Assembly (NCBI GenBank): GCA_013141175.1
Contig: JABFRN010000001.1
Coordinates: forward strand, 806,001 to 870,000
Direction: 5' to 3'
Source of the DNA: Lysobacter sp.
GTDB lineage: Bacteria > Pseudomonadota > Gammaproteobacteria > Xanthomonadales > Xanthomonadaceae
Length of the DNA stretch: 64,000 nt
Under the pieces are notes generated by a model. The model searched no databases. It was not told the origin of the DNA and worked only from the letters and a program-made list of their open reading frames with translations. Position numbers and translations under genes: made by a program. This document shows positions 9,025 through 31,187 of this stretch, piece by piece. Within the stretch, counting starts at the first letter, position 1. The number at the start of each line of letters is the position of its first letter.

Positions 9025-10254
<1,230 letters not shown>

Positions 10255-10284
10255 GCCTCGCAGGACATCGCGATAGCAGTCACA

Positions 10285-10310
10285 CGAAGGGCGCCGAAAG
10301 GCGCCTTTCG
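10285..10310 (+). terminator. metK terminator hairpin
   Basis: An 11-bp stem (10285-10295 with 10300-10310, one G-T pair) closed by a GAAA tetraloop, followed by a short T-rich run (TCGTTT). The AAGGGCGCC...GGCGCCTTT core is shared with the terminators at 11711 and 19961. Confidence 0.7.
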
Positions 10311-10363
10311 TCGTTTCGGGAAATGCGCAGGCAACGTCAAGGACAGCACATCCAAGACCGGGA

Positions 10364-10392
10364 TTGACAGACTGTGTGGCGCACAGTACCGT
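10364..10392 (+). promoter_or_regulatory. Promoter and embedded operator of the padR-like gene
   Basis: A consensus -35 box TTGACA (10364-10369) is followed 17 bases later by TACCGT (10387-10392) as a weak -10. An inverted repeat ACTGTG-n5-CACAGT (10371-10387) fills the spacer. Position and symmetry suit a dimeric PadR-type repressor that shuts its own operon by blocking polymerase. The ATG follows 8 bases after the -10, so the transcript would be nearly leaderless. Confidence 0.6.
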
Positions 10393-10399
10393 GCGCCGC

Positions 10400-10735
10400 A
10401 TGGCTGACCAAGACGCTTTCGCAAAACTCGAGCTGGAGCTGCGTCGCGGGGTGCTGGTGCTGGCCACGCTCTCGCAACTGCGCACGCCGCGCTACGGCTA
10501 CGAACTTCGGCAGGCGCTGGTGGAGAAAGGCATGCCGATCGAGGAAGGCACGCTGTATCCCCTACTGCGTCGTCTCGAAGCCCAGGGCGTGCTCGCCAGC
10601 GAATGGAAGATCGAGGACGGCCCGCCCCGCCGCTACTACGCGCTGAACGCGGACGGCCGCACGTTGCTCGACAAGCTCACCGGGTCATGGCAAGGCATGA
10701 ACGCCGCCATGGATCGACTGTTGAAAGAGGACTGA
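10400..10735 (+). CDS. PadR-family transcriptional regulator
   Basis: 111 residues with the PadR winged helix-turn-helix: L-R-R-G-V-L-V-L-A-T-L, the Y-G-Y-E-L-R-Q-A-L recognition region, E-E-G-T-L-Y-P-L-L-R-R-L-E and P-P-R-R-Y-Y-A-L-N-A-D-G. Length is that of the short PadR subfamily (PF03551), which binds ligands between the wing and a C-terminal helix and usually represses an adjacent membrane or transport gene. The next gene begins two bases after this stop (TGACCATG), so both form one operon under the promoter at 10364. Start at 10400 is preferred over 10364, which lies in the -35 box. Confidence 0.9.
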   Translation: MADQDAFAKLELELRRGVLVLATLSQLRTPRYGYELRQALVEKGMPIEEGTLYPLLRRLEAQGVLASEWKIEDGPPRRYYALNADGRTLLDKLTGSWQGMNAAMDRLLKED

Positions 10736-10737
10736 CC

Positions 10738-11706
10738 ATGCATGCGAACGACACGAATCTCAACGAATTGATCGAAAACTATGTCTCCGATGTCGGCCTG
10801 AAGCTGCCGCGCGCGCAGCGCGATGATGTCGCGTTCGAACTGCGCGCGCTGCTGCACGAGGAACTGCAGGCCAAGGCCGATGCCGCCGGGCGCCCTGTCG
10901 ATGCGGCGATGACGATGGCGCTGCTGCAGGCGTTCGGCCATCCCAACGAGGTCGCCGCGCGCTATCGCCCCATCCTGACCATCATCGATCCCGCCGACGG
11001 GCATGCGTTCCGCCGCATCACGCTCATCGGTCTGGCGGTGATCTGGTGCGCGGGGCTGCTGGAAGTCGTGCAGCAGCCCATCAACTCGGGATGGGACATC
11101 CTGACGCCATTGAGCCAATGGTGGTTGGGCGTCGTCATCCCTTCGCTGTGGTGGCCCGGCCTGCTGGTCGTCGGATTCGCGATGGCCGCGAGGTCGCGCC
11201 GCAGACGTCCGCACGCTGCCGTGTGGACACCGCGCACGGGTAAACGCACGCATGCGAATCGCATCGCGATGGCAGCGGGCATCGTCGGCATCCTGTGCGG
11301 CGTGTTCGTGCTGATCGAGCCACGTTGGCTGCTGGATGTCGTCTGGCAAGGCCGCGCCGCACAGGAGGCCTACACCGCGCTGACCTATGCCGAACCCTTC
11401 CGCCACCGTCAGGCCCCGATCCTGCTGGCACTGCTGCTGCTCAACATTCCGATGTTGACCGCCGCGATACTCGGCGGACGATGGTCGGTCAACATGCGTC
11501 GCATGGAAACCGCGTTGAGCCTCATCACCTGCAGCGTGATGCTGTGGACCGTCCTCGACGGCCCGGTGTTCATGGCCGACAGCAGCGACAGCACGGTCAA
11601 GTTCGTGATGGTCGCGATTGTTGCGATCACCTTGATCAACTTCGGGATTCAAGCGTTCCGGCGGGTGAGGCCGAAGCCGGACCGAGGGGTTCATGCACAG
11701 TCATGA
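10738..11706 (+). CDS. Membrane protein with N-terminal HAAS-like helical domain
   Basis: 322 residues. The first ~85 residues (I-E-N-Y-V-x-D-V-G-L-K-L-P, E-L-R-A-L-L-H-E-E-L, L-L-Q-A-F-G-H-P-N-E-V-A-A-R-Y) resemble the HAAS domain found in membrane proteins encoded beside PadR regulators. About six hydrophobic segments follow, with an Arg-rich loop (about 158-175) between them. The PadR/HAAS pairing is a known association; a role as a PadR-controlled membrane sensor or effector is inferred. It is followed immediately by a strong terminator. Confidence 0.78.
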   Translation: MHANDTNLNELIENYVSDVGLKLPRAQRDDVAFELRALLHEELQAKADAAGRPVDAAMTMALLQAFGHPNEVAARYRPILTIIDPADGHAFRRITLIGLAVIWCAGLLEVVQQPINSGWDILTPLSQWWLGVVIPSLWWPGLLVVGFAMAARSRRRRPHAAVWTPRTGKRTHANRIAMAAGIVGILCGVFVLIEPRWLLDVVWQGRAAQEAYTALTYAEPFRHRQAPILLALLLLNIPMLTAAILGGRWSVNMRRMETALSLITCSVMLWTVLDGPVFMADSSDSTVKFVMVAIVAITLINFGIQAFRRVRPKPDRGVHAQS

Positions 11707-20014: not shown

Positions 20015-22861
20015 TCAACCCCGCCGTGCGGGCGACGACATGCCGGAGGTCCGCTTCGCGTTCAACTCGTCCATGTAACCGTACTTTCTCGCGACCCGCT
20101 CGACATCACGATACGCAGCGCTGATCCGCACCGCATCGCCGCGCGCGATCTCGATATCCAGTTTCGACACGCCCATCACGAAGTGTTCGTGGGGCGCCTC
20201 CTCGATCGACGGGGCCAGGCACAGGAGGCGTGAGTGGATCGCAGAGGCCTCGTCGTAACGGCCTTGCGCGATACGGATCTTGAGCATGCTGGTCCAGGCC
20301 GCCTCCGGATAATCGCTGTCCGGGCCGAACAGCTCGCTCATCTCCGTAATCCCGCGCTGCGCTTGCCGCTCGGCCTCATCGACTTGATGGTCGTACAACA
20401 GCGTCTCGGCGTATTCATCGCGGGCATAGGCGATCGGCAAGCCCTGGCGCTCGCCCGTGCCCAGCACTTCGTACAGCAGGACCCTGGCTTCCAGGAACAG
20501 CGCCCGCTGCCTCTCTCCGCCCAGCATCCGCCCATTCTGCAGCAGCAGCGAGGCCAGATCGGTCTTCCGCTTGAGCGTCTCCTCGTGATTGGGGCCGTAA
20601 GCGCGCTCCAGCACATCGGCCGCCTCCCGTGCGATGTCCAGCGCGAGCGCGTAATCGCCGCTGTGGTATGCGATCGCACCACGGATGACCAGCGCATCGA
20701 CGAAATCCGGATGCTGCTGGCCGAGCGTACGGTCGAAAATCTGCGCCGCGCGATCCAGCGCGGAAGCCGCGCGCACGGAGTTCTTGTTGTAGAACCACGA
20801 CTTGCCGACGGCGATCCAGGCACGTCCGGTTTCCGGGTGCGCTTCGCCGAACAGCGTGCGGTTGCTTTCGAGCAGATCGGACGCCTGACGCAGCGCCGGC
20901 TTGCGATGACTGGTGAGAACCAGAAGGTCAACCAGATTCCTGCGCACGGCGTTGGCGGTCATTGGACTGCGGTCGCCAATCAGCTTGAGCGCTCGACGCA
21001 GATCCCTTTCGGCTTCCACGAACTCGAAGAGCTTGGTTTCCGCATAACCGCGCTGCCCCAGCAACTCCGCCTGTGCCGGCAACCCCTCGGCACCGAGTCC
21101 TTGCGCGGAGAGCACGGCGGCGTCGAGCACCACGATCGCGCCACGGGTGTCGCCCCTGCCCCAGCGCGCACGCGCGAGCTGCATCTGCAGGTCGAGCCTG
21201 ACCAGATCGTCCTCGATACCGCGGCGTTCGGGCACTGTCTGCATCGCGGCGCGCACGATCCGCTCCGCGTCGGCATGGCGCGACTGCAGACTCAGCAACT
21301 GCGCCCGTGCGGCATCGGCCCGGGCCGTCAGCAGCGGATCGCCGGCACCGATCCTCTTCGCTTCGTCCGCCAGCCTCGCCGCCTGCCGATAATCGCCGCT
21401 GATCAGCTGGGTGCGGGCAAGCGCGATCAGGCCGAGCGCCAGCGGCTTCGGCTGGTCGTGGCCGACCCGCTCGCGAATCCGCTGTTCGGTGTCGCTCAAC
21501 AAGGTCTGCGAACTCAGCGGCGCATTGCCCAGCGAAGACAGCGTCGCCACGCCGAGCGATTCCTCGAACACCCGGCTCAGCATCGCGGTCGCTTCCGCCG
21601 ATGCCTGCGCGCTGCGATGCTGCACGAACATCGCCCCCGCCGACAGCATCACCGCAACCGCGCACATCACGAATGCGGCGATCGAAATCGCGTTGCGGCG
21701 CGCATGGGTGATGGCCCGGTAGCGCCAACGACCGCCGCGCGCGGATACCGGCTGGCGCTGGATCCATGCGCTCAGATCGCGCTGCAGTTCGGCCACCGCA
21801 AGATAGCGTTCCTGCGGATCGATGGCCACCGCACGCAATGCGATGGCATCCAGATCGCCGCGCAGCATGCGCGCAAGCGCCTGTGCATTCCGCGCGCCGC
21901 GCGAGCGCGCAACCTGCGGATCCGAACGGGATGCCAACACGCTGGGCGATTCCGGCGCCGCGTCTTCCGACGCCGGCAGCGACGACGGTTTCATCGGCCC
22001 TTCGCCGCAGATCAGCCGATACAGCACGACGCCCAGCGCGTAGACATCGATCGCGATGCTCGGCGGCCCGCCGCGAAACACTTCCGGGGCCGCATAACCG
22101 CAGCTGACGCCGATCCGCGCGCTGCCGCCCTCCGCAGCCGACGAGAGCAGCGACGACAGTCCGAAATCCAGGAGTTTGACTTGCCCATCCTGCGTGACCA
22201 GCAGGTTCGACGGCTTGATGTCCTGATGCAGGATCCCGTGCCCGTGGGCATGCCGCACCGCATCGCATGCGTCGATCAGTCGCAGGATGCGCGTCCGCAG
22301 ATCGAGCAGATGCCCATCGCACCACCGGTCCATCGGATCGCCGGTCACCCGCTGCATCGCCAGCCACGGCTGGCCGTCCTCGCTGATCCCCGCATCGACC
22401 AGCGATGCGATGGACGCATGCTCGAGACGCGCGAGATTGCTGCGCTCATGGGCGAACGCGGCGAGCAGCGCGGGCGAGATCAGCTCGGAGCGGATGGTCT
22501 TGAGCGCGATGTCCTGCTCGTAGAGCCCATCGTCCCGGTGCGCGGCGTAGACGATGCCCATGCCGCCGATGCCGATGACGCTGTCCACGCACCATGCGCC
22601 CAGTCGCGTTCCGCTGCGCCAGATCGCGGTGGTGTCTCCGCGCGCGTCGCTTTCGCTTCTGGTCGCGATCCACCGCAACGGCGATGCGAACGTGTACGGC
22701 ATCGCGTCCGCATCCAGCAGCGTGACCAACGACGCATGCACGGCCGCATCTTGCCGCTTCAACGCTTCGAGCGCGCCGTTCAACCGTTCGCGCGGCATAT
22801 CGGCGTACTGGTCGAACAGGTCCAGCGCCCTGCTGGTGATCTCGTCGTCCTGATGCATCAT
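20015..22861 (-). CDS. Membrane Ser/Thr protein kinase with TPR-like extracytoplasmic tail
   Basis: 948 residues. Kinase domain about 90-370: glycine loop G-I-G-G-M-G (97-102), catalytic lysine K121 in A-L-K-T-I, catalytic loop H-Q-D-I-K-P-S-N (H212, Q213, D214; the usual R is Q, a non-RD kinase) and L-D-F-G (D232). A transmembrane helix lies near residues 395-415, after a basic stretch. The remaining ~500 residues are helical with repeated A-x-x-x-Y/L-x-x-A patterns typical of TPR-type repeats, probably periplasmic. An ECF sigma factor gene lies 108 bases upstream on the same strand, an association known for TIGR02999-type sigma factors. The target of the kinase is unknown; the divergent graspetide-like locus is a candidate regulon. 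Confidence 0.88.
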   Translation of the reverse strand: MMHQDDEITSRALDLFDQYADMPRERLNGALEALKRQDAAVHASLVTLLDADAMPYTFASPLRWIATRSESDARGDTTAIWRSGTRLGAWCVDSVIGIGGMGIVYAAHRDDGLYEQDIALKTIRSELISPALLAAFAHERSNLARLEHASIASLVDAGISEDGQPWLAMQRVTGDPMDRWCDGHLLDLRTRILRLIDACDAVRHAHGHGILHQDIKPSNLLVTQDGQVKLLDFGLSSLLSSAAEGGSARIGVSCGYAAPEVFRGGPPSIAIDVYALGVVLYRLICGEGPMKPSSLPASEDAAPESPSVLASRSDPQVARSRGARNAQALARMLRGDLDAIALRAVAIDPQERYLAVAELQRDLSAWIQRQPVSARGGRWRYRAITHARRNAISIAAFVMCAVAVMLSAGAMFVQHRSAQASAEATAMLSRVFEESLGVATLSSLGNAPLSSQTLLSDTEQRIRERVGHDQPKPLALGLIALARTQLISGDYRQAARLADEAKRIGAGDPLLTARADAARAQLLSLQSRHADAERIVRAAMQTVPERRGIEDDLVRLDLQMQLARARWGRGDTRGAIVVLDAAVLSAQGLGAEGLPAQAELLGQRGYAETKLFEFVEAERDLRRALKLIGDRSPMTANAVRRNLVDLLVLTSHRKPALRQASDLLESNRTLFGEAHPETGRAWIAVGKSWFYNKNSVRAASALDRAAQIFDRTLGQQHPDFVDALVIRGAIAYHSGDYALALDIAREAADVLERAYGPNHEETLKRKTDLASLLLQNGRMLGGERQRALFLEARVLLYEVLGTGERQGLPIAYARDEYAETLLYDHQVDEAERQAQRGITEMSELFGPDSDYPEAAWTSMLKIRIAQGRYDEASAIHSRLLCLAPSIEEAPHEHFVMGVSKLDIEIARGDAVRISAAYRDVERVARKYGYMDELNAKRTSGMSSPARRG

Positions 22862-22969: not shown

Positions 22970-23620
22970 TCACGGCGCGGATCGCGGCGCAGCCGGCACG
23001 ACCTGCGGCGAGTCGCCGGAATTCGCGTCCTCCAGTTGCGTCAGCAGGAACGCGCGTGCCCTGCGCCAATCCCGGCGCAGGGTGCGTTCGGTCACGCCCA
23101 GCGACGCCGCGATCTCGTCTTCGTCCATGCCGCCGAAGTAACGCATCTCCACCAACTGCGCCAGGCGCACGTCCAGGCGCGACAGCCGTGTGAGCGCGGC
23201 ATCCAAAGCCACCATCTCCGCCAGCGCGCTGTCCTGCCCGGGATCGAACCCGTCGTCCAGCGAGACCGCGCGATGTCCGTCGCCACGCTTTTCCGCCAGC
23301 TCTTTCCGCGCTTCGTCCATCAGTACGAAACGCATCGCGCGGGCGACCAGCGCCATGAAATGCCTGCGGTTGTCGACATTGAACTGCGCGCTCGCCAGCC
23401 GCAGCCAGCCTTCGCTGACCAGCGATGTCGCCGACATGCGCCCGAACGTGCGTTGCCGGATCTGCGAGTACGCGATGCGATGGAGGTCGTCGTAGAGCAC
23501 CGCATAGATACGGTCCCACGCGTCGTTCCGACCGGCCTGGGCTCCCGCCAGCAATTCCGTGACGGAGTCCATCGATTCAGGGGAACAACCGAGATCGTGC
23601 ATGACCATCGATTTGTCCAT
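22970..23620 (-). CDS. ECF sigma factor of the TIGR02999 type
   Basis: 216 residues. Region 2: L-Y-D-D-L-H-R-I-A-Y-S-Q-I-R, A-T-S-L-V-S-E-G-W-L-R-L, then R-R-H-F-M-A-L-V-A-R-A-M-R. Region 4: L-V-E-M-R-Y-F-G-G-M-D-E-D-E-I-A-A-S-L-G-V-T-E-R-T-L-R-R-D-W-R-R-A-R-A-F-L, the C-terminal helix-turn-helix with its W-R-x-A-R signature. This subgroup (ECF43-like, 'sigma with partner kinase') is usually encoded beside a Ser/Thr kinase, as here. No anti-sigma factor is seen, consistent with control by phosphorylation. Several Met codons near 23620 make the precise start uncertain. Confidence 0.88.
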   Translation of the reverse strand: MDKSMVMHDLGCSPESMDSVTELLAGAQAGRNDAWDRIYAVLYDDLHRIAYSQIRQRTFGRMSATSLVSEGWLRLASAQFNVDNRRHFMALVARAMRFVLMDEARKELAEKRGDGHRAVSLDDGFDPGQDSALAEMVALDAALTRLSRLDVRLAQLVEMRYFGGMDEDEIAASLGVTERTLRRDWRRARAFLLTQLEDANSGDSPQVVPAAPRSAP

Positions 23621-23874: not shown

Positions 23875-24489
23875 ATGGCATCGACGCCGCTCTATCGTTC
23901 GGAAGTCCTCGAAGCCAAGCGCAATCGCTGGCTCGGCAGCCTCATCATCCGTCAACCCATGTCGCACTGGGCCATGACCTGGATCGCGATCGGCGCGGTC
24001 GCCGTCGCCATCGCTTTTCTCTACATCGGCGAATACGCGCGAAAAATCCGCATCGAAGGAAGACTGGTCGAAACGCAAGCCGCAGTGCAATACGCGACTG
24101 CCGACAATGCGGGCCGTGCGGGCAGCGGTCTCGAAGTCGAACTTCTGGTCCCCGAAAACCTGTTGGCATCGATTGCCGTCGGCGGCGAAGTGCTGTTGCG
24201 CTATCCCGCCTATCCGCATCAGCACTACGGCCAATATCGCGGCCGGATCGTCGGCATTTCGCGGCAACCCGCGCAAGCGGGCGCGATCGACACGCCGGCC
24301 GGGCGCTCGCATAGCCGCTATCGCGCCACCGTCGCGCTCGAACGCCAGCGCGTCCGCGACGACAGCGGCATCGAGCGCGATCTGCGGCCGGGTCTCGGCG
24401 TCGAGACCGACATCGTCCTCGAAAAGCACCGCCTGTACGAATGGTTGATCCAGCCGTTCGCGCGACTGCGCGAACGCATCGCCGCATGA
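23875..24489 (+). CDS. Truncated HlyD-family adaptor without coiled-coil hairpin
   Basis: 204 residues. The N-terminus (L-Y-R-S-E-V-L-E-A-K-R-N-R-W-L-G) and single membrane helix (about 36-53) are those of HlyD-type adaptors for C39-peptidase ABC exporters, and the C-terminal half has their beta-barrel pattern: V-E-L-L-V-P-E-N-L-L-A-S-I-A-V-G, L-R-Y-P-A-Y-P-H-Q-H-Y-G-Q-Y, then L-R-P-G-L-G-V-E-T-D-I-V-L-E and L-Y-E-W-L. The lipoyl and alpha-hairpin parts that should lie between (about 150-200 residues) are absent: only G-R-L-V-E-T-Q-A-A-V joins the two halves. It opens the RiPP locus. No strong Shine-Dalgarno. It cannot reach a TolC channel in the usual way, so it may dock only on the ABC exporter. 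Confidence 0.78.
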   Translation: MASTPLYRSEVLEAKRNRWLGSLIIRQPMSHWAMTWIAIGAVAVAIAFLYIGEYARKIRIEGRLVETQAAVQYATADNAGRAGSGLEVELLVPENLLASIAVGGEVLLRYPAYPHQHYGQYRGRIVGISRQPAQAGAIDTPAGRSHSRYRATVALERQRVRDDSGIERDLRPGLGVETDIVLEKHRLYEWLIQPFARLRERIAA

Positions 24490-24528
24490 CACGAACCACC
24501 ACGCCCTCCCCTGACAAGGAACGCACAC

Positions 24529-25644
24529 ATGGCCGATACATCCAAGACCGTCTTCATCCACACCATGCCCGACGACTGGCACGCCATCCTGGCGGAGGCT
24601 GCGCTCAAGCGGCGCGGGCATCGGGTGCTGCGCTATTTCGGCACGGATTTCCCGGAACGCGCCGAAGTCGAGTTCTCGTACGGCAAGGACGGCGAAGCGC
24701 TGCACCTGCATACCATCGACGGCAGCTTCGCGCTCTCGGACTTCGACGTGGTCTGGAACCGGCGCATGCTCGGACCGAAGGTTCCATCCCATGTCGATCC
24801 GCGCGACCGTGAGTACGTCTCGCAACAGATCCGCTTCGCGGATGCCTCGTTGCGCAGCCTGTTGCGCGAAGCGTTCTGGATCAATCCCCACGATGCAGCG
24901 CGCAACGCCGATCACAAGCCGAAGCAGCTGCAGCTCGCGCTGCGCAACGGACTGCGGATTCCCGAGACCTTGATCAGCAACCGCCCGGAGGCGATCCGGG
25001 CGTTCATCGAGCGGCACCCGAGCGTCATCCACAAGCCCCTGATCGGCGCCGCGTGGGAAGAGAACGACAAGACATTGTCCACCTACACGGCGCGGGTCCG
25101 CAGCGAAGATCTTCCCGGAGACGAGCTGCTGCGCGCCGGGCCCGGCATTTTCCAGGCGCAGGTCAAGAAACAGTTCGAAGTCCGCGCGCAGTTCTTCGGC
25201 GCGAGCTGTTTCGCGCTGAAGATCGATCCATCGCGGATCGAATACGGCGAGATGGACTGGCGCCTGCACCAGCACGGCGACATGACAGACGGCAGCGTCA
25301 CCCTGCCGGACCAGGTGTACCAGGCCTGCTTGAAACAACTCCGCAGCCTCGGGCTGGTCGCCGGCGCATTCGACTTCATCGTCACCCCCGACGACGAATG
25401 GATCTACCTCGAAGTCAACGAAGCCGGTCAGTTCATTTTCGTCGAACAGTGGTGCGACGAACTGACCTTGTTCGATGCCTTCTGCCACTTCGTCGAAAGC
25501 GGCGACCCGGCTTTCGAATACCGCAAACCCTCGGACCCGCAGCGCCTCGCCGAGCTGATCGAACACACCCAACCGGAAGCGGTCGGCGAGCAGGACGCGC
25601 TGCGCAGGGAACCTTCTCCCGATACGCAGGCAGAGGCTGCGTGA
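24529..25644 (+). CDS. MvdD-like ATP-grasp ligase (graspetide macrocyclase candidate)
   Basis: 371 residues with the arrangement of RiPP ATP-grasp ligases such as MvdD: N-terminal alpha/beta domain ending in D-V-V-W-N-R-R (about 70-76), the central K-P-K-Q-L-Q-L-A-L-R-N-G-L-R-I-P-E-T-L-I-S region, H-K-P-L (about 168), Q-x-x-V-K-K-Q-F-E-V-R for nucleotide and metal binding, and the C-terminal A-G-A-F-D-F-I-V-T plus W-I-Y-L-E-V-N-E-A-G-Q-F, with acidic metal ligands E-V-N-E. Such enzymes phosphorylate Asp/Glu side chains of a precursor and form omega-esters or amides with Thr/Ser/Lys. Six precursor genes follow and supply suitable residues. Start at 24529 has AAGGA nine bases upstream. No GNAT acetylase or second ligase is present. 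Confidence 0.88.
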   Translation: MADTSKTVFIHTMPDDWHAILAEAALKRRGHRVLRYFGTDFPERAEVEFSYGKDGEALHLHTIDGSFALSDFDVVWNRRMLGPKVPSHVDPRDREYVSQQIRFADASLRSLLREAFWINPHDAARNADHKPKQLQLALRNGLRIPETLISNRPEAIRAFIERHPSVIHKPLIGAAWEENDKTLSTYTARVRSEDLPGDELLRAGPGIFQAQVKKQFEVRAQFFGASCFALKIDPSRIEYGEMDWRLHQHGDMTDGSVTLPDQVYQACLKQLRSLGLVAGAFDFIVTPDDEWIYLEVNEAGQFIFVEQWCDELTLFDAFCHFVESGDPAFEYRKPSDPQRLAELIEHTQPEAVGEQDALRREPSPDTQAEAA

Positions 25645-25769
25645 ACCCCATGCGCACCCGCGGACGCGCGGACAGCGGTCGCTGTTGCGGCGAACTCAGC
25701 GCCTGCACCAGTGTCGGCCCGTGATACGGGCATTTCATCCGGAAGTTCAATCATAAGGATCAAACAACA

Positions 25770-26072
25770 ATGGACACCAAGAACCAACGCGTGCTCGGCC
25801 GCATTCTGGCCGTCGAAGAACTGACGACCGTGGCCGGGGCCAGACCGCCATTGACCCTGGCTTTCTATGCCGAAACCGACCCGCTGTCCGACAGCAGCAC
25901 CACCGCAGACAGCGGCACCGTCTCGGACAGCGGCACGGTCTCGGATAGCGGCACCACCGCAGACAGCGGCACCACTGCCGACAGTGGCACCACCGCAGAC
26001 AGCGGCACGACGGCGGACAGCGGCACGTTCACCGACACCAGCCCCGCGCTGCGGCCGGACTATCAGATCTGA
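25770..26072 (+). CDS. Graspetide-like precursor peptide 1 (T-x-x-D-S-G repeats)
   Basis: 100 residues. Leader (1-24): R7-V-L-G-R-I-L-A-V-E-E then V-A-G-A, a double-glycine-type cleavage motif for the C39 exporter. The predicted core (25-100) holds seven uninterrupted hexapeptides T-[TV]-[AS]-D-S-G (residues 44-85), with a degenerate unit on each side, and ends P-D-Y-Q-I. Each unit offers Thr/Ser hydroxyls next to an Asp carboxylate, the chemistry used by ester-forming ATP-grasp ligases. AAGGA stands 9 bases before the ATG. Cleavage and crosslinks are predictions. Confidence 0.82.
   Translation: MDTKNQRVLGRILAVEELTTVAGARPPLTLAFYAETDPLSDSSTTADSGTVSDSGTVSDSGTTADSGTTADSGTTADSGTTADSGTFTDTSPALRPDYQI
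25899..26024 (+). repeat. Seven 18-bp tandem repeats inside precursor gene 1
   Basis: Seven consecutive 18-bp units coding T-[TV]-[AS]-D-S-G. Third-base differences among units show they are maintained at protein level rather than being a very recent pure DNA expansion. Confidence 0.8.
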
Positions 26073-26092
26073 CCCCCAGGTTTTTTTCCAAC

Positions 26093-26125
26093 CCCTGCGC
26101 GCGCCGCGCGCGCGACGCGCGCAGG
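26093..26125 (+). promoter_or_regulatory. Intergenic hairpin after precursor gene 1
   Basis: A GC-only inverted repeat (CCTGCGCGCG ... CGCGCGCAGG) beginning about 20 bases after the stop of precursor 1. It has no T-run downstream (a T-run precedes it at 26081-26087). It could protect the upstream mRNA or partially terminate. Confidence 0.5.
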
Positions 26126-26149
26126 GCGCTGGATTCCGGGACGCATCGA

Positions 26150-26257
26150 ATGAAGAACCAAACAGATCGCGTCCTCGGGAAGCATTTTTCGCCGGCGTCG
26201 CACCCGCGCAGCGCATCGCCTGCAACCCACACCGCGAGCATCCCCCGACAGCGGTGA
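26150..26257 (+). pseudogene. Possible relic of a seventh precursor leader
   Basis: A 35-codon frame starting M-K-N-Q-T-D-R-V-L-G-K, closely like the first 11 residues of the neighbouring leaders (x-x-x-N-x-x-R-V-L-G-R), but then departing into H-F-S-P-A-S without the A-V-E-E and double-glycine parts. It sits exactly between precursor genes 1 and 2. Best read as a decayed or truncated precursor; chance similarity cannot be excluded. Confidence 0.4.
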
Positions 26258-26317
26258 AACAAGAGTCGCATGTCGCGGCTCCATCCAGAACGCAACACCA
26301 GCCAAGGAGTTCCACAG

Positions 26318-26608
26318 ATGAACGGAAAACACGAAAACCGTGTGCTCGGCCGCATCCTGGCGGTCGAGGAACTCGAAATGATCTCCGGCGCCAAATGCAC
26401 CATTCCGGAGTACGACACTTCATGCAATGAAACCGGCACGACATCCGACAGCGGTACGACCTCCGACAGCGGTACGACCTCCGACAGCGGTACGACCTCC
26501 GATAGCGGCACCACCGCCGACAGCGGCACCACTGCGGACAGCGGCACCAGTGCGGACACCAGTCCGGTGGCCGAGACAAGGGCTTCGAGGTTCGTGGACC
26601 AGATCTGA
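26318..26608 (+). CDS. Graspetide-like precursor peptide 2 (T-T-x-D-S-G repeats)
   Basis: 96 residues. Leader: R8-V-L-G-R-I-L-A-V-E-E-L-E-M-I-S-G-A (to residue 25). The core begins K-C-T-I-P-E-Y-D-T-S-C and has six hexapeptides, four T-T-S-D-S-G then two T-T-A-D-S-G (41-76), a final T-S-A-D-T-S-P shared with precursor 1, and a C-terminal V-D-Q-I resembling D-Y-Q-I of precursor 1. Two cysteines ahead of the repeats might form a disulfide. Shine-Dalgarno AAGGAG is 8 bases upstream of the ATG. Confidence 0.82.
   Translation: MNGKHENRVLGRILAVEELEMISGAKCTIPEYDTSCNETGTTSDSGTTSDSGTTSDSGTTSDSGTTADSGTTADSGTSADTSPVAETRASRFVDQI
26438..26545 (+). repeat. Six 18-bp tandem repeats inside precursor gene 2
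   Basis: Six consecutive 18-bp units coding T-T-[SA]-D-S-G. The first four are nearly identical at DNA level, pointing to recent expansion; the unit is homologous to that of precursor 1. Confidence 0.8.
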
Positions 26609-26648
26609 TCCGCGGATGATCGTGATTGAAACTGTGCAAAGCGAACCG

Positions 26649-26680
26649 CTGCGCACGACGAAGACATCCGTCGTGCGCAG
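26649..26680 (+). promoter_or_regulatory. Intergenic hairpin after precursor gene 2
   Basis: A perfect 12-bp stem CTGCGCACGACG/CGTCGTGCGCAG with an 8-nt loop, about 40 bases after the stop of precursor 2. A very similar stem lies after precursor 5. Confidence 0.6.
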
Positions 26681-26801
26681 CACCGGATCGCCTCGCGCAC
26701 GAACGACGGCCGCCTTCGGTGCATGCATTCCTGCGAATGCGCGCACCGAAGACGGGCGACCAACGCCCACCTTCAAACCAACCTCCTATTGCGAGAACAC
26801 G

Positions 26802-26981
26802 ATGAACAACGAGAACACCCGCGTACTTGGCCGCGTCCTGGCCGTGGAAGAAACCACTGCCGTTTCCGGCGCCCGCCCGCTGACGACCTTTCCGCCGAAA
26901 GACACCGGCTACGTCTACGACGTCATTCCGCTCGATGCGCAGGACGTCACGATGTCTTCGTTCCACGCCAGGACGCTCTGA
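26802..26981 (+). CDS. Graspetide-like precursor peptide 3
   Basis: 59 residues. Leader 1-24: R7-V-L-G-R-V-L-A-V-E-E-T-T-A-V-S-G-A. The core (25-59) is unlike those of peptides 1 and 2: R-P-L-T-T-F-P-P-K-D-T-G-Y-V-Y-D then D-A-Q-D-V-T-M-S-S-F and a basic end. It supplies Thr and Ser and one Lys as nucleophiles and four Asp. The RBS is weak. Confidence 0.78.
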   Translation: MNNENTRVLGRVLAVEETTAVSGARPLTTFPPKDTGYVYDVIPLDAQDVTMSSFHARTL

Positions 26982-27045
26982 AAACGCCGCTCACCCGGCG
27001 CTCCCGGAGACCTTTCCGGTCTTCATCATCCACTGAGGAACCCAC

Positions 27046-27231
27046 ATGAAACAGAACGACAAGCGCATACTCGGCCGCATCCTGGCCGTCGAAGAAACCA
27101 ACGATGTCGCCGGCGGCTGGACGCTCGGCAGCGCCGGCGACACCGCGAAATTCACCGATACCGGCCCGTATACCGTCGACAGCAAACCCCTCATCGACAT
27201 CATCATCAGTCCCGACAGTACCAAACGCTGA
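27046..27231 (+). CDS. Graspetide-like precursor peptide 4
   Basis: 61 residues. Leader 1-24: R7-I-L-G-R-I-L-A-V-E-E-T-N-D-V-A-G-G, the only one with a true double glycine at the predicted site. The core (25-61) starts W-T-L-G-S-A-G-D and contains F-T-D-T-G-P-Y-T-V-D-S-K and ends S-P-D-S-T-K-R: many Thr/Ser placed next to Asp. GAGGAA lies 6-7 bases before the ATG. Confidence 0.8.
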   Translation: MKQNDKRILGRILAVEETNDVAGGWTLGSAGDTAKFTDTGPYTVDSKPLIDIIISPDSTKR

Positions 27232-27376
27232 TCGAAGACACGGATCGGATAGCGATATCCGGCCGCATCGATCCGACATGCGCGTTTTCCGGATCGCACT
27301 TCGATGTCGTCCGTTTTTTGCGGTATCGCAAGCGCGAAGACGGTTCGCGCAGCGTGGCTCGGATCTTTTGAAACCA

Positions 27377-27416
27377 TTCCGGCGGGCGTCCCTGCACGCA
27401 GGAACGCCCGCCGGAA
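27377..27416 (+). promoter_or_regulatory. Intergenic hairpin after precursor gene 4
   Basis: A 12-bp perfect stem TTCCGGCGGGCG/CGCCCGCCGGAA that is nearly continued by an inner CCTGC/GCAGG pair, giving a long stem of about 17 bp. It lies 54 bases before the ATG of precursor 5. Confidence 0.55.
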
Positions 27417-27469
27417 TCGAAACCCGATCGCACTCTCCATCGTTACGCCCATCGAAAAGGAACAGGCTC

Positions 27470-27673
27470 ATGGACAACGACAACAAACGCATTCTCGGCC
27501 GCACGCTCGCCGTCGAGGAAACCCTGGCCATCTCGGGCGCAAGGCCCACGTCGACGCGTGCCGATACGCGCATCGACGTCAACGGCAATCCGGACACGGC
27601 GCCTACCCAGGATTCGGGCACGGCCGCGGATACATCCAACACGATACTCGACCCGTCCCCCGCCGGCGCCTGA
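27470..27673 (+). CDS. Graspetide-like precursor peptide 5
   Basis: 67 residues. Leader 1-24: R7-I-L-G-R-T-L-A-V-E-E-T-L-A-I-S-G-A. The core (25-67) has R-P-T-S-T-R-A-D-T-R-I-D and, later, T-Q-D-S-G-T-A-A-D-T-S-N-T, a single diverged version of the D-S-G-T unit tandemly repeated in peptides 1 and 2, linking the core types. AAGGA stands 7 bases before the ATG. Confidence 0.8.
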   Translation: MDNDNKRILGRTLAVEETLAISGARPTSTRADTRIDVNGNPDTAPTQDSGTAADTSNTILDPSPAGA

Positions 27674-27687
27674 TGCGGTTGACGACG

Positions 27688-27725
27688 GAATTGCGCACGG
27701 CGAATCCATCCGTCGTGCGCAATTC
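27688..27725 (+). terminator. Terminator-like hairpin after precursor gene 5
   Basis: A 15-bp stem GAATTGCGCACGGCG/CGTCGTGCGCAATTC with one G-T pair and an 8-nt loop, followed by TTCTTC. Probably partial termination, since genes 6 and the exporter continue downstream. Confidence 0.6.
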
Positions 27726-27855
27726 TTCTTCGCATCCCGGGCCTGGAAATCATCGCGCGCGATTTCGGCCAGTCGTCTGAAGCAGGCAGACTGGCCGAAG
27801 CCCAGCCGATGCCGCCGGGCTTCCGCATGTCATCAATCACAACATGGAGAATTAC

Positions 27856-28125
27856 GTGAACAACGGTGGAAATCGCATTCTCGGCCGCATTCTGGCGGTG
27901 GAAGAAACGAAGCATGTCGGCGGCGCGACAGGCAGGGATCTCGGCACCGGCCCCGACGGCGGGTCCGACATCTCGCTTCCTGTGGAGGACAGCATCCCTT
28001 GCAACGAGAGCAGCTCTCACACCGACACGGCCTGTCAGCCGAACTCGGATATCACGCCCACCGATCCGCTGCTCGATTGCAACTCGTCATCGACCATACG
28101 CGATATCTGTCTCGACCCCGCTTGA
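27856..28125 (+). CDS. Graspetide-like precursor peptide 6 (four cysteines)
   Basis: 89 residues from the GTG at 27856. With this start R falls at position 7 as in the other leaders (R-I-L-G-R-I-L-A-V-E-E-T-K-H-V-G-G-A), and GGAG, part of an upstream in-frame ATG at 27844, becomes a well-spaced Shine-Dalgarno; the ATG would add only four residues. The core is the only one with four cysteines (I-P-C-N-E, T-A-C-Q-P, L-D-C-N-S, D-I-C-L-D) and is rich in Ser/Thr and Asp. It may be disulfide-bonded as well as crosslinked. Confidence 0.78.
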   Translation: MNNGGNRILGRILAVEETKHVGGATGRDLGTGPDGGSDISLPVEDSIPCNESSSHTDTACQPNSDITPTDPLLDCNSSSTIRDICLDPA

Positions 28126-28161
28126 AGACTTCTGTCTGCATTCCCGATACAAGATGAACCC

Positions 28162-28189
28162 GGCTCCCCGCGCTTCACGGCGGGGAGCC
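28162..28189 (+). promoter_or_regulatory. Hairpin between precursor 6 and exporter gene
   Basis: A perfect 10-bp stem GGCTCCCCGC/GCGGGGAGCC with an 8-nt loop and no T-run, 26 bases before the exporter ATG. It could lower exporter expression relative to the precursors. Confidence 0.55.
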
Positions 28190-28214
28190 CTACCGATCCA
28201 GGAACGCGCCCGCC

Positions 28215-30377
28215 ATGCCCATCCTCAAAAGCCTGCTGCAGACCGAAGCCGCGCAATGCGGGCATACCTGTCTGGCGATGGTGCTGGACTATCACGGCCG
28301 GCAGATGGACGGCCTGGCGCTGCAGCGCGAATACCCCTCTTCGATGCGCGGCGTCACCCTGGCCAATCTGATCGACGACGCCAGCGTCGCCGGACTGCAG
28401 TGCCGTGCGCTGCGGATCGAGCTGGAAGAACTGCCGCAGCTGGAGACGCCCTGCATCCTGCACTGGAACATGGATCACTTCGTGGTGCTGGCGAAGGCAA
28501 CCGCGACCGGGATCGTGATCCACGACCCCGCCACCGGCGTGCGCAAATTGCGCATGAGCGAAGCGTCGGCGCAGTTCACCGGCGTTGCGCTCGAGCTTTC
28601 GCCCACCGCGACGTTCCAGAAGCGCAAACTCGACGACAGCATTTCGCTGCGCCACCTCGTCGGCCAGGTCACCGGCCTGAAGCGCTCGGCCGCGCAGATC
28701 CTGTCGCTGTCGCTGATCCTGCAGCTGTTCGGGCTGCTGACCCCGTTCTACATGCAGTGGGTGCTGGACGATGTGCTGGTTACGCAGGACAAGGATTTCC
28801 TGTGGTTGATCAGCGTCGGTTTCCTGTTCTCGATGCTGATCACCTCGGCGATCGGCTGGCTGCGCAGCTGGTGTCTTGCGTATTTGTCCACCCGCATCGG
28901 CCTGCAGTGGTTCGGCAGCATCCTGGCGCACCTGCTGCGCCTGCCGATGGATTATTTCCAGAAGCGCCATCTGGGCGATGTCGTGTCGCGGATGGAATCG
29001 GTGCATGCGATCCAGACTACGCTCAGTTCCAGCTTCATCGAGGCCCTGCTCGATGGCCTGATGGTGGTGATCGCGGTGGCGGTGATGGTGTCGTACAGCT
29101 GGAAGCTGCTGCTGATCAGCGTGATCGCGGTCGGCCTGTACCTGGCGATCCGTTGGGCGACGTTCCCGACCATCAAGCGCCTGTCCGAACAGCAGCTCTC
29201 CGCCGCCGCCAAGCAGGACACCCATCTGCTCGAATCCATCCGCGGCATCCAGGCGCTGAAACTCAATGCCGCCGAATCGATGCGCCGCGCGACCTTCGGC
29301 ACGCTGATGGCCGACACCGCGAATCTCGGCCTGGACATCCAGCGCTTCATGCTGCGCTTCGGTTTCGCCAACCAGATGCTGTTCGGCATCGAACGGCTGC
29401 TGGTGGTCGGGCTGGCCGCGCTGCTGGTGATGCAGGGCCAGATGAGCGTCGGCATGCTGGTGGCGTATCTGGCCTACAAGGAAATGTTCACCGGCGGCGT
29501 CAGCCGCCTGATCGACACCTGGATGTCGTTCCGCACCCTGCGCGTGCAGGCGGAACGTCTGGCCGACATCGTGCTGACCGAACCTGAGGAAATCACCGCG
29601 CCCAGCGGCCCGGCGCTGCCGCAGGATCGCCCGCTGGGTCTCGAGGTGCGCGGACTGCGCTACCGCTTCAGCGATTCCGATCCGCTGGTGATCGACGACT
29701 GCGCGCTGACCGTCGCGCCGGGCGAAACCATCGCCCTGGTCGGCCCGTCCGGCTGCGGCAAGACCACGCTGATGAAGCTGATGCTGGGCCTGCTCAAGCC
29801 GCAGGCGGGCTGCATCCTGGTCGAAGGCCGCGATATCACCGACATCGGCCTGCGCCGCTATCGCCATGTGGTCGCTGCGGTGATGCAGGACGACCAGCTG
29901 TTCGCCGGTTCGATCGCCGACAACATCGCCTTCGGCAGCGAGGATCTGGATTTCGAACGGATCGAAGCCGCCGCGCAGTCCGCGTCGGTCCACGACGATG
30001 TGATGCGCATGCCGATGGGTTATCAGACCCTGATCGGCGACATGGGCGCGGCGCTGTCGGGCGGGCAGAAGCAGCGCGTGATCCTGGCGCGCGCGCTGTA
30101 CAAGCGTCCGAGCATCCTGTTCCTGGACGAGGCGACGAGTCATCTGGACGTGGATTCGGAGCGCGCGGTCAACGAGGCGGTGCGCAAGCTGAAGTTGACC
30201 AAGATCCTGATCGCGCATCGTCCGGAAACCATCGTCAGCGCGGAGCGCGTGCTGGTGATGGCGAATGGGCGGGTGGAGCGCGAGTATCGTCCTGCGGAGC
30301 GGGCGTTGCGGTTGGTGGCGGATGCGGAAGCCGGGCAGGATGGGGCTTCGGCGCAGCGGGGGGAGTTGTTGGCTTGA
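28215..30377 (+). CDS. C39-peptidase-containing ABC exporter (bifunctional leader protease and transporter)
   Basis: 720 residues in three parts. The C39 peptidase (1-~135) has catalytic C15 in T-E-A-A-Q-C-G, H88 in M-D-H-F-V-V-L and D104 in I-H-D-P-A-T-G. The membrane domain (about 160-450) has six predicted helices. The ATPase (about 475-700) has Walker A G-P-S-G-C-G-K-T-T, signature L-S-G-G-Q-K-Q-R, Walker B I-L-F-L-D-E-A-T-S and an H-loop I-A-H-R. Such exporters cut double-glycine-type leaders on the cytosolic side and export the product. The six precursors with [VI]-x-G-[AG] end motifs directly upstream are the evident substrates. The HlyD-type partner at 23875 is truncated, and no TolC gene is present. 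Confidence 0.93.
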   Translation: MPILKSLLQTEAAQCGHTCLAMVLDYHGRQMDGLALQREYPSSMRGVTLANLIDDASVAGLQCRALRIELEELPQLETPCILHWNMDHFVVLAKATATGIVIHDPATGVRKLRMSEASAQFTGVALELSPTATFQKRKLDDSISLRHLVGQVTGLKRSAAQILSLSLILQLFGLLTPFYMQWVLDDVLVTQDKDFLWLISVGFLFSMLITSAIGWLRSWCLAYLSTRIGLQWFGSILAHLLRLPMDYFQKRHLGDVVSRMESVHAIQTTLSSSFIEALLDGLMVVIAVAVMVSYSWKLLLISVIAVGLYLAIRWATFPTIKRLSEQQLSAAAKQDTHLLESIRGIQALKLNAAESMRRATFGTLMADTANLGLDIQRFMLRFGFANQMLFGIERLLVVGLAALLVMQGQMSVGMLVAYLAYKEMFTGGVSRLIDTWMSFRTLRVQAERLADIVLTEPEEITAPSGPALPQDRPLGLEVRGLRYRFSDSDPLVIDDCALTVAPGETIALVGPSGCGKTTLMKLMLGLLKPQAGCILVEGRDITDIGLRRYRHVVAAVMQDDQLFAGSIADNIAFGSEDLDFERIEAAAQSASVHDDVMRMPMGYQTLIGDMGAALSGGQKQRVILARALYKRPSILFLDEATSHLDVDSERAVNEAVRKLKLTKILIAHRPETIVSAERVLVMANGRVEREYRPAERALRLVADAEAGQDGASAQRGELLA

Positions 30378-31187
30378 GCGTCGCTGGCGCTGTTTCGGCT
30401 TCACTCATTTGGTTTCATGCACGATCTTCCTGTGACCTTGACTGATGTTTCGTGGCGCTGTCTGTATCGGCGTTTCATGCTGAACGGGTAAGGCCTGTCA
30501 TCTTTTTCGCGCTGGGGCGCGAGTTACTTTCTTTGGCGCAAAGAAAGTAACCAAAGAAACACTCAGGTCCAATTCAAACCTGCGGTCTGAGGCGAAGCCG
30601 GGATTTTTCGATGAGGCGTCCTGCCTCATCGAAAAACGGCGCACGTCCTGTGCGCCGCCCTCCGGGTCTGCGATCAGGGGAAAGTGTGCCGTCTCCGCTA
30701 GATCATCAGGACGTTGCCCTCTGCCGGCATTCAAGAATGCTTCCGTCGTTTTCGTGGCGTTTCATGCATGGCATGCTTCAGCACCTCGTGAGATTGTCCG
30801 CACGTTGTGAAAAAAACCAGCAATCTACATCGTCCTATCCATACCCAGACCATGGTTTCGTCGGACCTGGTTGTAGACCCGGAGGGCGATGCACAGGATG
30901 TGCATCGTTTTTCGATGAGACATGGATGTCTCGTCGAAAAATCCCGGCTTCGCCTCAGAAGGCAGGTTTGAATTGGACCTGAGTGTTTCTTTGGTTACTT
31001 TCTTTGCGCCAAAGAAAGTAACTCGCGCCCCAGCGCGAAAAAGGTGCCAGGCTTTACCCGCACCGCATGAAGCGCCGACACAGACAGCACCACGAAACAT
31101 CAGTCAAGACCGTTCGACGATCATGCGGGAAGCGCTTGTGCGAAGTCGAAGCCACCGCAAAAAATGAAGTCGTGTAGCCCCGCAAAC
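30378..31187. other. Gene-free interval dominated by a large inverted repeat
   Basis: About 810 bases without credible coding sequence between the exporter and kdpE. Nearly all of it is occupied by the two arms of the inverted repeat and their ~200-base centre, which includes two short palindromes but no gene. Confidence 0.7.
30437..31108. repeat. Large inverted repeat, arms of about 235 bp
   Basis: Left arm about 30437-30671, right arm about 30873-31108, in opposite orientation. They match from CTTGACTGATG at the outer ends to GCCCTCCGGGTCT at the inner ends. The central ~90 bases (from TTTTTCGCGCTGGGGCGCGA to CAATTCAAACCTGC) are practically identical; outer parts differ by scattered substitutions. 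Each arm contains further palindromes, e.g. TTACTTTCTTTGGCGCAAAGAAAGTAA and a TTTTTCGA...TCGAAAAA stem. A related but single copy lies at 53660-53930. Confidence 0.8.

What the first reader, a model, noticed from the sequence alone, without database searches (positions are those of the whole stretch)
23875..30377. Undescribed-looking graspetide-type RiPP locus with six precursors and one leader
An MvdD-like ATP-grasp ligase, six adjacent small genes with the same leader but unrelated cores, a truncated HlyD and a C39-peptidase ABC exporter stand in one strand-consistent row. ATP-grasp ligases of this type make omega-ester or amide macrocycles (graspetides). I know of no graspetide class combining tandem T-[TV]-[AS]-D-S-G cores with several other core types under one leader, but novelty cannot be tested here.
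Basis: partly seen in the sequence, partly recalled or inferred. Interest (0 to 1): 0.93.

Follow-up and report, generated by a model that had tools for sequence, protein, structure and literature searches.

The report
Predicted chain-of-rings peptide gene cluster
A Lysobacter-like bacterium carries one RiPP-type ligase gene beside six small peptide genes whose different-looking cores share one spacing pattern, a serine or threonine five residues before an aspartate, so the enzyme likely ties each peptide into a row of small separate rings, which would be a new shape in the graspetide class.

Summary
The ligase's best sequence and fold matches are graspetide synthetases, ranked above RimK. Ligase and leader hit the same 5 of 198 family genomes. 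"Truncated HlyD" is right but not decay: four of four aligned Lysobacter-clade loci share it. "Unrelated cores" is wrong. All 158 parsed precursors contain [ST]-x4-D. With one core per family (29 non-tandem families), Ser/Thr stands five residues before 105 of 142 Asp (shuffles 0.27, none of 2000 reaching it); in 18 families without a discovery member, 64 of 76. Neighbouring hexads overlap in 1 of 90 cases and often abut. In tandem cores 193 of 195 Asp-bounded hexads start with Ser/Thr. I infer Ser/Thr(i)-to-Asp(i+5) macrolactones side by side (2 to 9 per window core) rather than interlocked or nested rings. One core family departs from the rule and a covariation test was negative. Chemistry is untested. 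Multi-precursor and repeat-core graspetides are known, and published Lysobacter clusters could not be compared: new variant of a known kind.

The parts
23875..24489 (+). short HlyD-type adaptor, 204 aa, without the lipoyl and hairpin region
   Evidence: TIGR01843, profile positions 308-412 of 422 only, 36 bits, below cut-off; shared internal deletion in 4 of 4 Lysobacter-clade loci; full length 420-421 aa in L023, L024; no Pfam match
24529..25644 (+). ATP-grasp graspetide synthetase, 371 aa
   Evidence: PF21068, 45.4 bits, cut-off 27; AF2 pLDDT 93.5
25770..26072 (+). precursor 1, tandem core; 9 predicted hexads
26318..26608 (+). precursor 2, tandem core; 9 predicted hexads (one ends in Glu)
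26802..26981 (+). precursor 3 (TFPPKDTGYVYD core); 2 predicted hexads
27046..27231 (+). precursor 4 (GGWTLGSAGD core); 2 hexads, two further Asp with Thr at -6 instead
27470..27673 (+). precursor 5 (TRADTRIDVNGNPDTAPTQDSG core); 4 predicted hexads
27844..28125 (+). precursor 6 (SLPVEDSIPCNES core, the type also found in outgroup L023); 5 predicted hexads (one ends in Glu); start may be GTG 27856
28215..30377 (+). C39-peptidase ABC exporter (PCAT), 720 aa
   Evidence: Peptidase_C39 99 bits, ABC_membrane, ABC_tran; bacteriocin transporter 4ry2 matched over residues 9-688
22970..23620 (-). divergent ECF sigma factor, possible regulator (adjacent, link inferred)
   Evidence: PF07638, 126 bits; same place in L005-L007 and L009/L023; also present without the module
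20015..22861 (-). Ser/Thr kinase with TPR repeats next to the ECF gene (link inferred)
   Evidence: Pkinase 113 bits, TPR_12

Best explanation
This is a graspetide-type RiPP locus in which one ATP-grasp ligase is predicted to bind the shared leader of six precursors and join the side chain of a Ser or Thr to an Asp five residues on, so that each hexad [ST]-x-x-x-x-D would become one 20-membered macrolactone and neighbouring hexads would become a row of separate, abutting rings. The C39 domain of the exporter would then cut after the leader's GA or GG and export the core; the hairpin-less HlyD probably assists at the inner membrane. Shown by sequence: gene order, leader, ligase family, the hexad rule, its near-absence of overlap and its recurrence in relatives; the ligase fold is a confident prediction. 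Inferred: ester formation, connectivity, order of steps, cleavage site, export route. Unknown: the target of the products; protease inhibition is a guess from other graspetides (PMC8939145 passage).
Against: No chemistry was tested. In the window's own four non-tandem cores the rule is weak alone (12 of 24 Asp, z 2.7). The WTLGSAGD family departs from it (63 of 132 at -5; +1 is its top offset). Nine of 29 families have another top offset. Glu alone shows no signal in eight representatives (3 of 8). A column covariation test found no coupling at -5 (odds ratio 1.08) and more at -6 (3.79) and -9 (2.63). The decoupling test is weaker over all 149 distinct cores (0.52 against 0.37) and indecisive in the tandem set (0.43 against 0.39). 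In the representatives 41 of 146 Asp lie outside any hexad. The ligase scores below NCBIfam's cut-offs (226 against 350 for TIGR04187). Families share ancestry, so counts are not independent.
Confidence: 0.62

Rival explanations
1. An ordinary graspetide locus whose rings are nested or interlocked, as in plesiocin or the microviridins; the i+5 spacing would mark only one ring of a multicyclic unit.
For: Characterised graspetides are said to be typically interlocked or ring-within-ring (PMC13097080 passage); Ser/Thr at -11 is also enriched (51 of 114).
Against: Each hexad offers one acid; neighbouring hexads overlap in 1 of 90 cases; the -11 signal is expected from abutting hexads; TTxxxxEE, TxKxPSD and TxxKxxDD occur in 0 of 158 cores.
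Confidence: 0.2
2. In the tandem arrays the donor is the Thr three residues before Asp, giving four-residue rings.
For: T-x-[AS]-D is common in the tandem cores: Ser/Thr at -3 in 151 of 195 hexads.
Against: Position -5 is Ser/Thr in 193 of 195 with free Ser-Thr exchange; -3 is at background in non-tandem families (37 of 144, 0.26).
Confidence: 0.07
3. The cores are not cross-linked within the chain: the ligase joins chains to each other or adds another group, and the acidic, hydroxyl-rich repeats act as metal-binding or structural secreted peptides.
For: The cores are rich in Asp, Ser and Thr; for the two tandem ones NCBIfam gave only matches far below cut-off, mostly to adhesin and lipoprotein models.
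Against: Close fold and sequence kinship to intramolecular macrocyclases; the hexad rule also holds in short non-repetitive cores; like hexads mostly differ in codons (8 of 8 and 5 of 6 distinct DNA hexads), against mere DNA slippage.
Confidence: 0.08

Closest known systems
Chryseoviridin (CdnC, PDB 7mgv)
   Same: Top Foldseek match of the ligase; several precursors in one locus, and a core motif TxxxxDxxxTxKxPSDxD[DE] that holds the same TxxxxD spacing (PMC8939145 passages). [quoted passage not shown] the paper is not held).
   Different: No TxKxPSD in any of 158 cores here; the [ST]xxxxD unit recurs through the core and often abuts.
Plesiocin / thuringinin
   Same: Repeated core units under one leader, made by a related ATP-grasp ligase (PMC12291112 and PMC13097080 passages); PsnB, which I recall as the plesiocin enzyme, is a fold match.
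   Different: They have two esters per repeat unit (PMC12291112 figure legend); TTxxxxEE is absent here (0 of 158) and only one acid closes each hexad.
Engineered tandem fuscimiditide (ThfA46)
   Same: One ring per repeat, three repeats in a row, 3-fold dehydrated (PMC12291112 passage).
   Different: Designed, with Gly-Pro-Gly linkers between repeats and a different, larger ring; here the units are natural, abut and number up to 9 per window core.
Corallotide (graspetide group 15)
   Same: Repeated single rings in one long precursor (PMC13097080).
   Different: KxxxD isopeptide rings, hydroxylated, in a BGC with an oxygenase and a beta-lactamase; here [ST]xxxxD, KxxxD in only 9 of 158 cores and neither gene in the row of four gene kinds seen.
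Lysobacter cluster 859 and other branch-3 loci of Makarova et al. 2022; RODEO groups 26, 30, 32, 34, 35, 40 of Carter et al. 2026
   Same: Lysobacter origin and leader similarity across unlike cores (PMC8939145); PCAT or protease neighbours or repeat precursors (PMC13097080).
   Different: Cannot be compared: the sequences are in figures and supplements that were not available. This family may be in those sets unnamed.
Gra-8, Lysobacter capsici (group 19)
   Same: A Lysobacter graspetide made in E. coli, up to three dehydrations (PMC9576775).

Membership tests
Graspetides (class) | ATP-grasp ligase of the MvdC/MvdD type | tested here: met
   PF21068 45.4 bits, cut-off 27; PDB and fold matches to MdnB, MdnC, AMdnB, CdnC, PruB, PsnB above RimK. 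NCBIfam cut-offs for TIGR04184, TIGR04185 and TIGR04187 not reached.
Graspetides (class) | adjacent precursor with a conserved leader and a core holding donor (S/T/K) and acceptor (D/E) residues | tested here: met
   Six precursors; [ST]xxxxD in 158 of 158 parsed precursors, 4 of 162 not parsed; same 5 of 198 genomes as the ligase.
Graspetides (class) | side-chain ester or amide cross-links formed by the ligase | not testable with these tools
   Needs co-expression and mass spectrometry.
Microviridins (group 1) | PFFARFL leader and TxKxPSD core | tested here: not met
   PFFARFL in 0 of 162 precursors, TxKxPSD in 0 of 158 cores.
Plesiocin type | TTxxxxEE repeats (motif recalled) | tested here: not met
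   0 of 158 cores.
Corallotide type (group 15) | KxxxD repeats with a 2OG oxygenase | tested here: not met
   KxxxD in 9 of 158 cores; the genes of the row are HlyD, ligase, precursors and ABC exporter only.
Graspetide leader motif Phhx(1,2)h of PMC8939145 | Pro followed by two hydrophobic residues in the leader | tested here: not met
   2 of 158 leaders; the paper reports it in about half of precursors.
Makarova cluster 859 / RODEO groups 25-43 | membership by sequence cluster | not testable with these tools
C39-type peptide exporter (PCAT) | N-terminal Peptidase_C39 plus ABC membrane and ATPase domains | tested here: met
   bacteriocin transporter 4ry2 matched over residues 9-688. Cleavage itself not tested.

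The most novel reading that the evidence does not exclude
A third graspetide architecture: one ligase reads only a spacing rule (Ser/Thr, then Asp five residues on) and turns almost any core into a chain of up to about nine to eleven side-by-side 20-membered macrolactones, so that a single locus makes five to seven different ring chains at once.
Probability: 0.5. Interest if true: 0.78.

Novelty: new variant of a known kind. Interest (0 to 1): 0.63.

Why it matters
If the rule is the enzyme's real specificity, bond positions can be predicted from sequence for this whole family, whereas the 2022 survey reports that for most of its new precursors connectivity could not be predicted (PMC8939145). 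A ligase that needs only a leader and a hexad spacing would also be a useful tool for making multi-ring peptides, and rows of separate rings would be a new shape to test for protease inhibition or other activity. The series from one hexad (L024) through six in one precursor (L023) to five to seven precursors per locus, with up to eleven hexads per core in the family, is a clear case of how RiPP diversity can grow around one enzyme.

Tried and rejected
Unrelated cores: rejected. HlyD as a decaying pseudogene: rejected, the same deletion is shared by 4 of 4 aligned Lysobacter-clade loci and matches of about 0.6 kb occur in the same 5 of 11 genus genomes as the ligase, the other ten matches being about 1.2 kb. 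DNA slippage as the sole cause of the repeats: unlikely, codons differ between most like hexads. ECF/kinase pair as a dedicated regulator: not established; 8 of 11 genus genomes (ours included) have an ECF at least 63% identical but only 5 have the ligase, and in L042 and L043 the pair stands without the graspetide genes; the third such genome, L044, could not be read clearly. I looked for a shared motif in the ECF/HlyD gap and found nothing I would defend. Leader outside the family: 1 of 369 sampled class genomes, only our own. Covariation test: negative. Single-linkage families merged too much (8 families, one of 120) and were replaced by average linkage. In print: a search for TTADSG, ADSGTTADSG, GRILAVEE and GRVLAVEE found no paper; searches on ATP-grasp with Lysobacter, omega-ester repeats, macrolactone/tandem and TxxxxD gave the surveys cited and a few others seen only in the listing. 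The mini HlyD was not folded.

Papers: PMC8939145, abstract, sections 5, 6 (parts 1 and 2 of 3) and 7, and passages; PMC13097080, abstract, section 7 and passages; PMC9576775, section 11 and passages; PMC12291112, passages; PMC13147305, abstract and outline only; jacs.1c02316 not held, title seen in a reference list.

Rows dropped: of 162 precursor sequences, 4 did not parse (P0136 has no leader; P0222, P0227, P0228 leader variants). One search listed 120 of 126 hits. L024's precursor was left out of the counts. Some parsed sequences are copies of each other (149 distinct cores).

Full report
OBSERVATION. The window is a stretch of a complete 4.16-Mb chromosome (G000:C1:806001-870000); the three relatives found in named records are metagenome assemblies called Lysobacter sp. 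or Lysobacterales. The six short genes share a leader, R-[VI]-LGR-x-LAVEE-x(3)-[VI]-x-G-[AG]; across 19 non-tandem precursors from six loci M1, R7, L9, G10, L13, E16 and G23 are invariant. The corresponding DNA pattern has six exact matches in the whole genome, all in this row.

PAIRING AND SPREAD. A ligase search (E up to 1e-60) and a leader-profile search (E up to 1e-3) of 198 genomes of the family hit the same five genomes. In the genus 5 of 11 genomes have the ligase. The leader profile hits 1 of 369 sampled genomes of the class, our own. Three relatives with full context (L005 94%, L006 79%, L007 77% identical ligase) keep the order HlyD, ligase, precursors, exporter with 6, 7 and 5 precursors. 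A more distant one (L023, 52%, another genus) has a single precursor, of the type of our precursor 6, and a full-length HlyD. The most distant (L024, 40%) has a 57-aa precursor with leader RVLGHILSKEEMELVAGG beside a 2OG-Fe(II) oxygenase.

THE HEXAD RULE. Aligning the non-tandem precursors suggested that all cores are laid out in units [ST]-x-x-x-x-D, in which the residue after the Asp is often again Ser/Thr and opens the next unit. I wrote this down before the third homologue search. Of 162 precursor sequences then in hand 158 parsed into leader and core; 29 were tandem (four or more D-[ST]-[GS]) and 129 not. Ser/Thr stands at -5 of Asp in 224 of 336 cases in 67 non-redundant non-tandem cores (shuffles 0.27, z 16) and in 243 of 292 in the tandem cores (z 17). 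With one core per non-tandem family (29 families) it is 105 of 142 against 0.27, reached by 0 of 2000 shuffles; -5 is the top offset in 20 of 29 families; in 18 families with no member from the window, L005-L007 or L023 it is 64 of 76. In the 105 distinct cores first seen it is 370 of 564. All 158 parsed cores hold at least one [ST]xxxxD.

Three further tests speak to meaning. (i) Abutment: among 119 hexads in the 29 representatives 45 are followed at once by another, against a shuffle mean of 1.4 and maximum of 8. (ii) Non-overlap: 1 of 90 neighbouring hexads overlaps (shuffle mean 0.27, 3 of 2000 as low); counting Asp alone 0 of 76 (38 of 2000 as low); over all 149 distinct cores 14 of 550. 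(iii) Which acid the hydroxyl belongs to: an Asp with no acid six before it still has Ser/Thr at -5 in 57 of 88, whereas an Asp with no acid six after it has Ser/Thr at +1 in only 16 of 75, which is background. So in the representatives the hydroxyl goes with the acid downstream. This third test is weaker over all 149 cores and indecisive in the tandem set. Within the tandem arrays 193 of 195 Asp-bounded hexads begin with Ser or Thr (146 and 47), while -3 is Ser/Thr in 151 of 195. In hexads of the non-tandem cores Pro at the third position is enriched 4.7-fold.

RESULTS AGAINST. The four non-tandem window cores alone give only 12 of 24. The WTLGSAGD family (31 members) has 63 of 132 at -5, with Thr at -6 for two of its four usual Asp (read from the sequences). 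Glu shows no signal (3 of 8). A test for joint loss of acid and hydroxyl in alignment columns was negative at -5 (odds ratio 1.08) and higher at -6 (3.79) and -9 (2.63). In the representatives 41 of 146 Asp lie outside any hexad. The families share ancestry, so z-scores overstate independence.

MECHANISM. Established for the class: the synthetase phosphorylates a carboxylate and a side-chain nucleophile attacks it (PMC13097080). Inferred here: the leader docks the ligase; each Asp is activated and captured by the Ser/Thr five residues before it, giving a ring that I count as 20 atoms; hexads are closed one by one; the C39 domain cuts after GA/GG (117 GA, 40 GG, 1 GS among 158 leaders) during export. 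Characterised graspetides are described as typically interlocked or ring-within-ring (PMC13097080) and the repeat types plesiocin and thuringinin as two esters per unit (PMC12291112). A natural row of abutting single rings is in none of the passages I read; the nearest are corallotide's separate KxxxD rings and an engineered fuscimiditide with three linker-spaced single rings (ThfA46). The nearest precedent for the spacing is chryseoviridin, whose core motif contains TxxxxD (PMC8939145) and whose ligase is the top Foldseek hit.

EXPORT AND REGULATION. The short HlyD keeps the membrane anchor region and the C-terminal domain but lacks about 220 residues including the lipoyl and hairpin parts (Pfam finds a lipoyl domain in the full-length L023 protein; the hairpin is placed there from general knowledge of HlyD). 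Adaptors are thought to meet the outer-membrane channel through that hairpin (general knowledge), so the product may be released to the periplasm or pass on with help from elsewhere; this is inference. The divergent ECF sigma factor and TPR kinase resemble in kind the Xanthomonas PknS-EcfK pair, where the kinase activates the sigma factor by phosphorylation (PMC13147305 abstract). They adjoin the ligase in L005-L007 and L023, but close ECF homologues also stand in three genus genomes without the ligase, and in two of these the gene order shows the pair without the module, so the module was probably gained or lost beside a standing regulator pair.

NOVELTY. Loci with several precursors and diverse cores under one ligase, repeat cores, and Lysobacter graspetides are in print (PMC8939145, PMC9576775, PMC13097080). 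No held paper contains the tandem or leader strings searched. The supplements that would show whether this family is already listed were not available. I rate it a new variant of a known kind: class membership nearly certain on sequence, topology a strong but untested prediction.

Noticed in passing
L021:8797-8985, 9267-9464 and 9674-10894 (G000:C1 near 3486889): Second likely graspetide locus in the same genome: an MvdD-domain ATP-grasp (PF21068, 53.7 bits) preceded by two paralogous small ORFs with a different leader (QLAS.QK...KADHK/KADQK) and cores with CTDPT or CADPT.
   Followed up: partly
L020:9021-10172 (G000:C1:665254) with HlyD at G000:C1:661044-662282: Third ATP-grasp relative (33% identity) about 3 kb from a full-length HlyD; precursors not sought.
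   Followed up: no
L022 about 9194-9784 (G000:C1:883693): Fourth, shorter ATP-grasp match in a lower-GC stretch 13 kb beyond the window, possibly acquired.
   Followed up: no
L024:6523-12000: Related locus (ligase 40% identical) with a single-hexad, Pro-rich precursor and a protein that joins a weak C39-like domain (below Pfam's cut-off) to a 2OG-Fe(II) oxygenase (L024:7673-8719), suggesting a hydroxylated single-ring product.
   Followed up: partly
L042, L043: Same-genus genomes hold the ECF/kinase pair and a neighbouring 266-aa gene in order but no graspetide module, so the module seems to come and go as a unit.
   Followed up: partly
window 30414-31131: Large inverted repeat just downstream of the exporter: 208-nt arms, 88% complementary, with a second 57-nt pair inside; nature not determined.
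   Followed up: partly
window 27046-27231 and relatives (WTLGSAGD family): The core family that departs most clearly from the hexad rule: Thr stands six, not five, residues before two of its Asp. Unexplained.
   Followed up: partly
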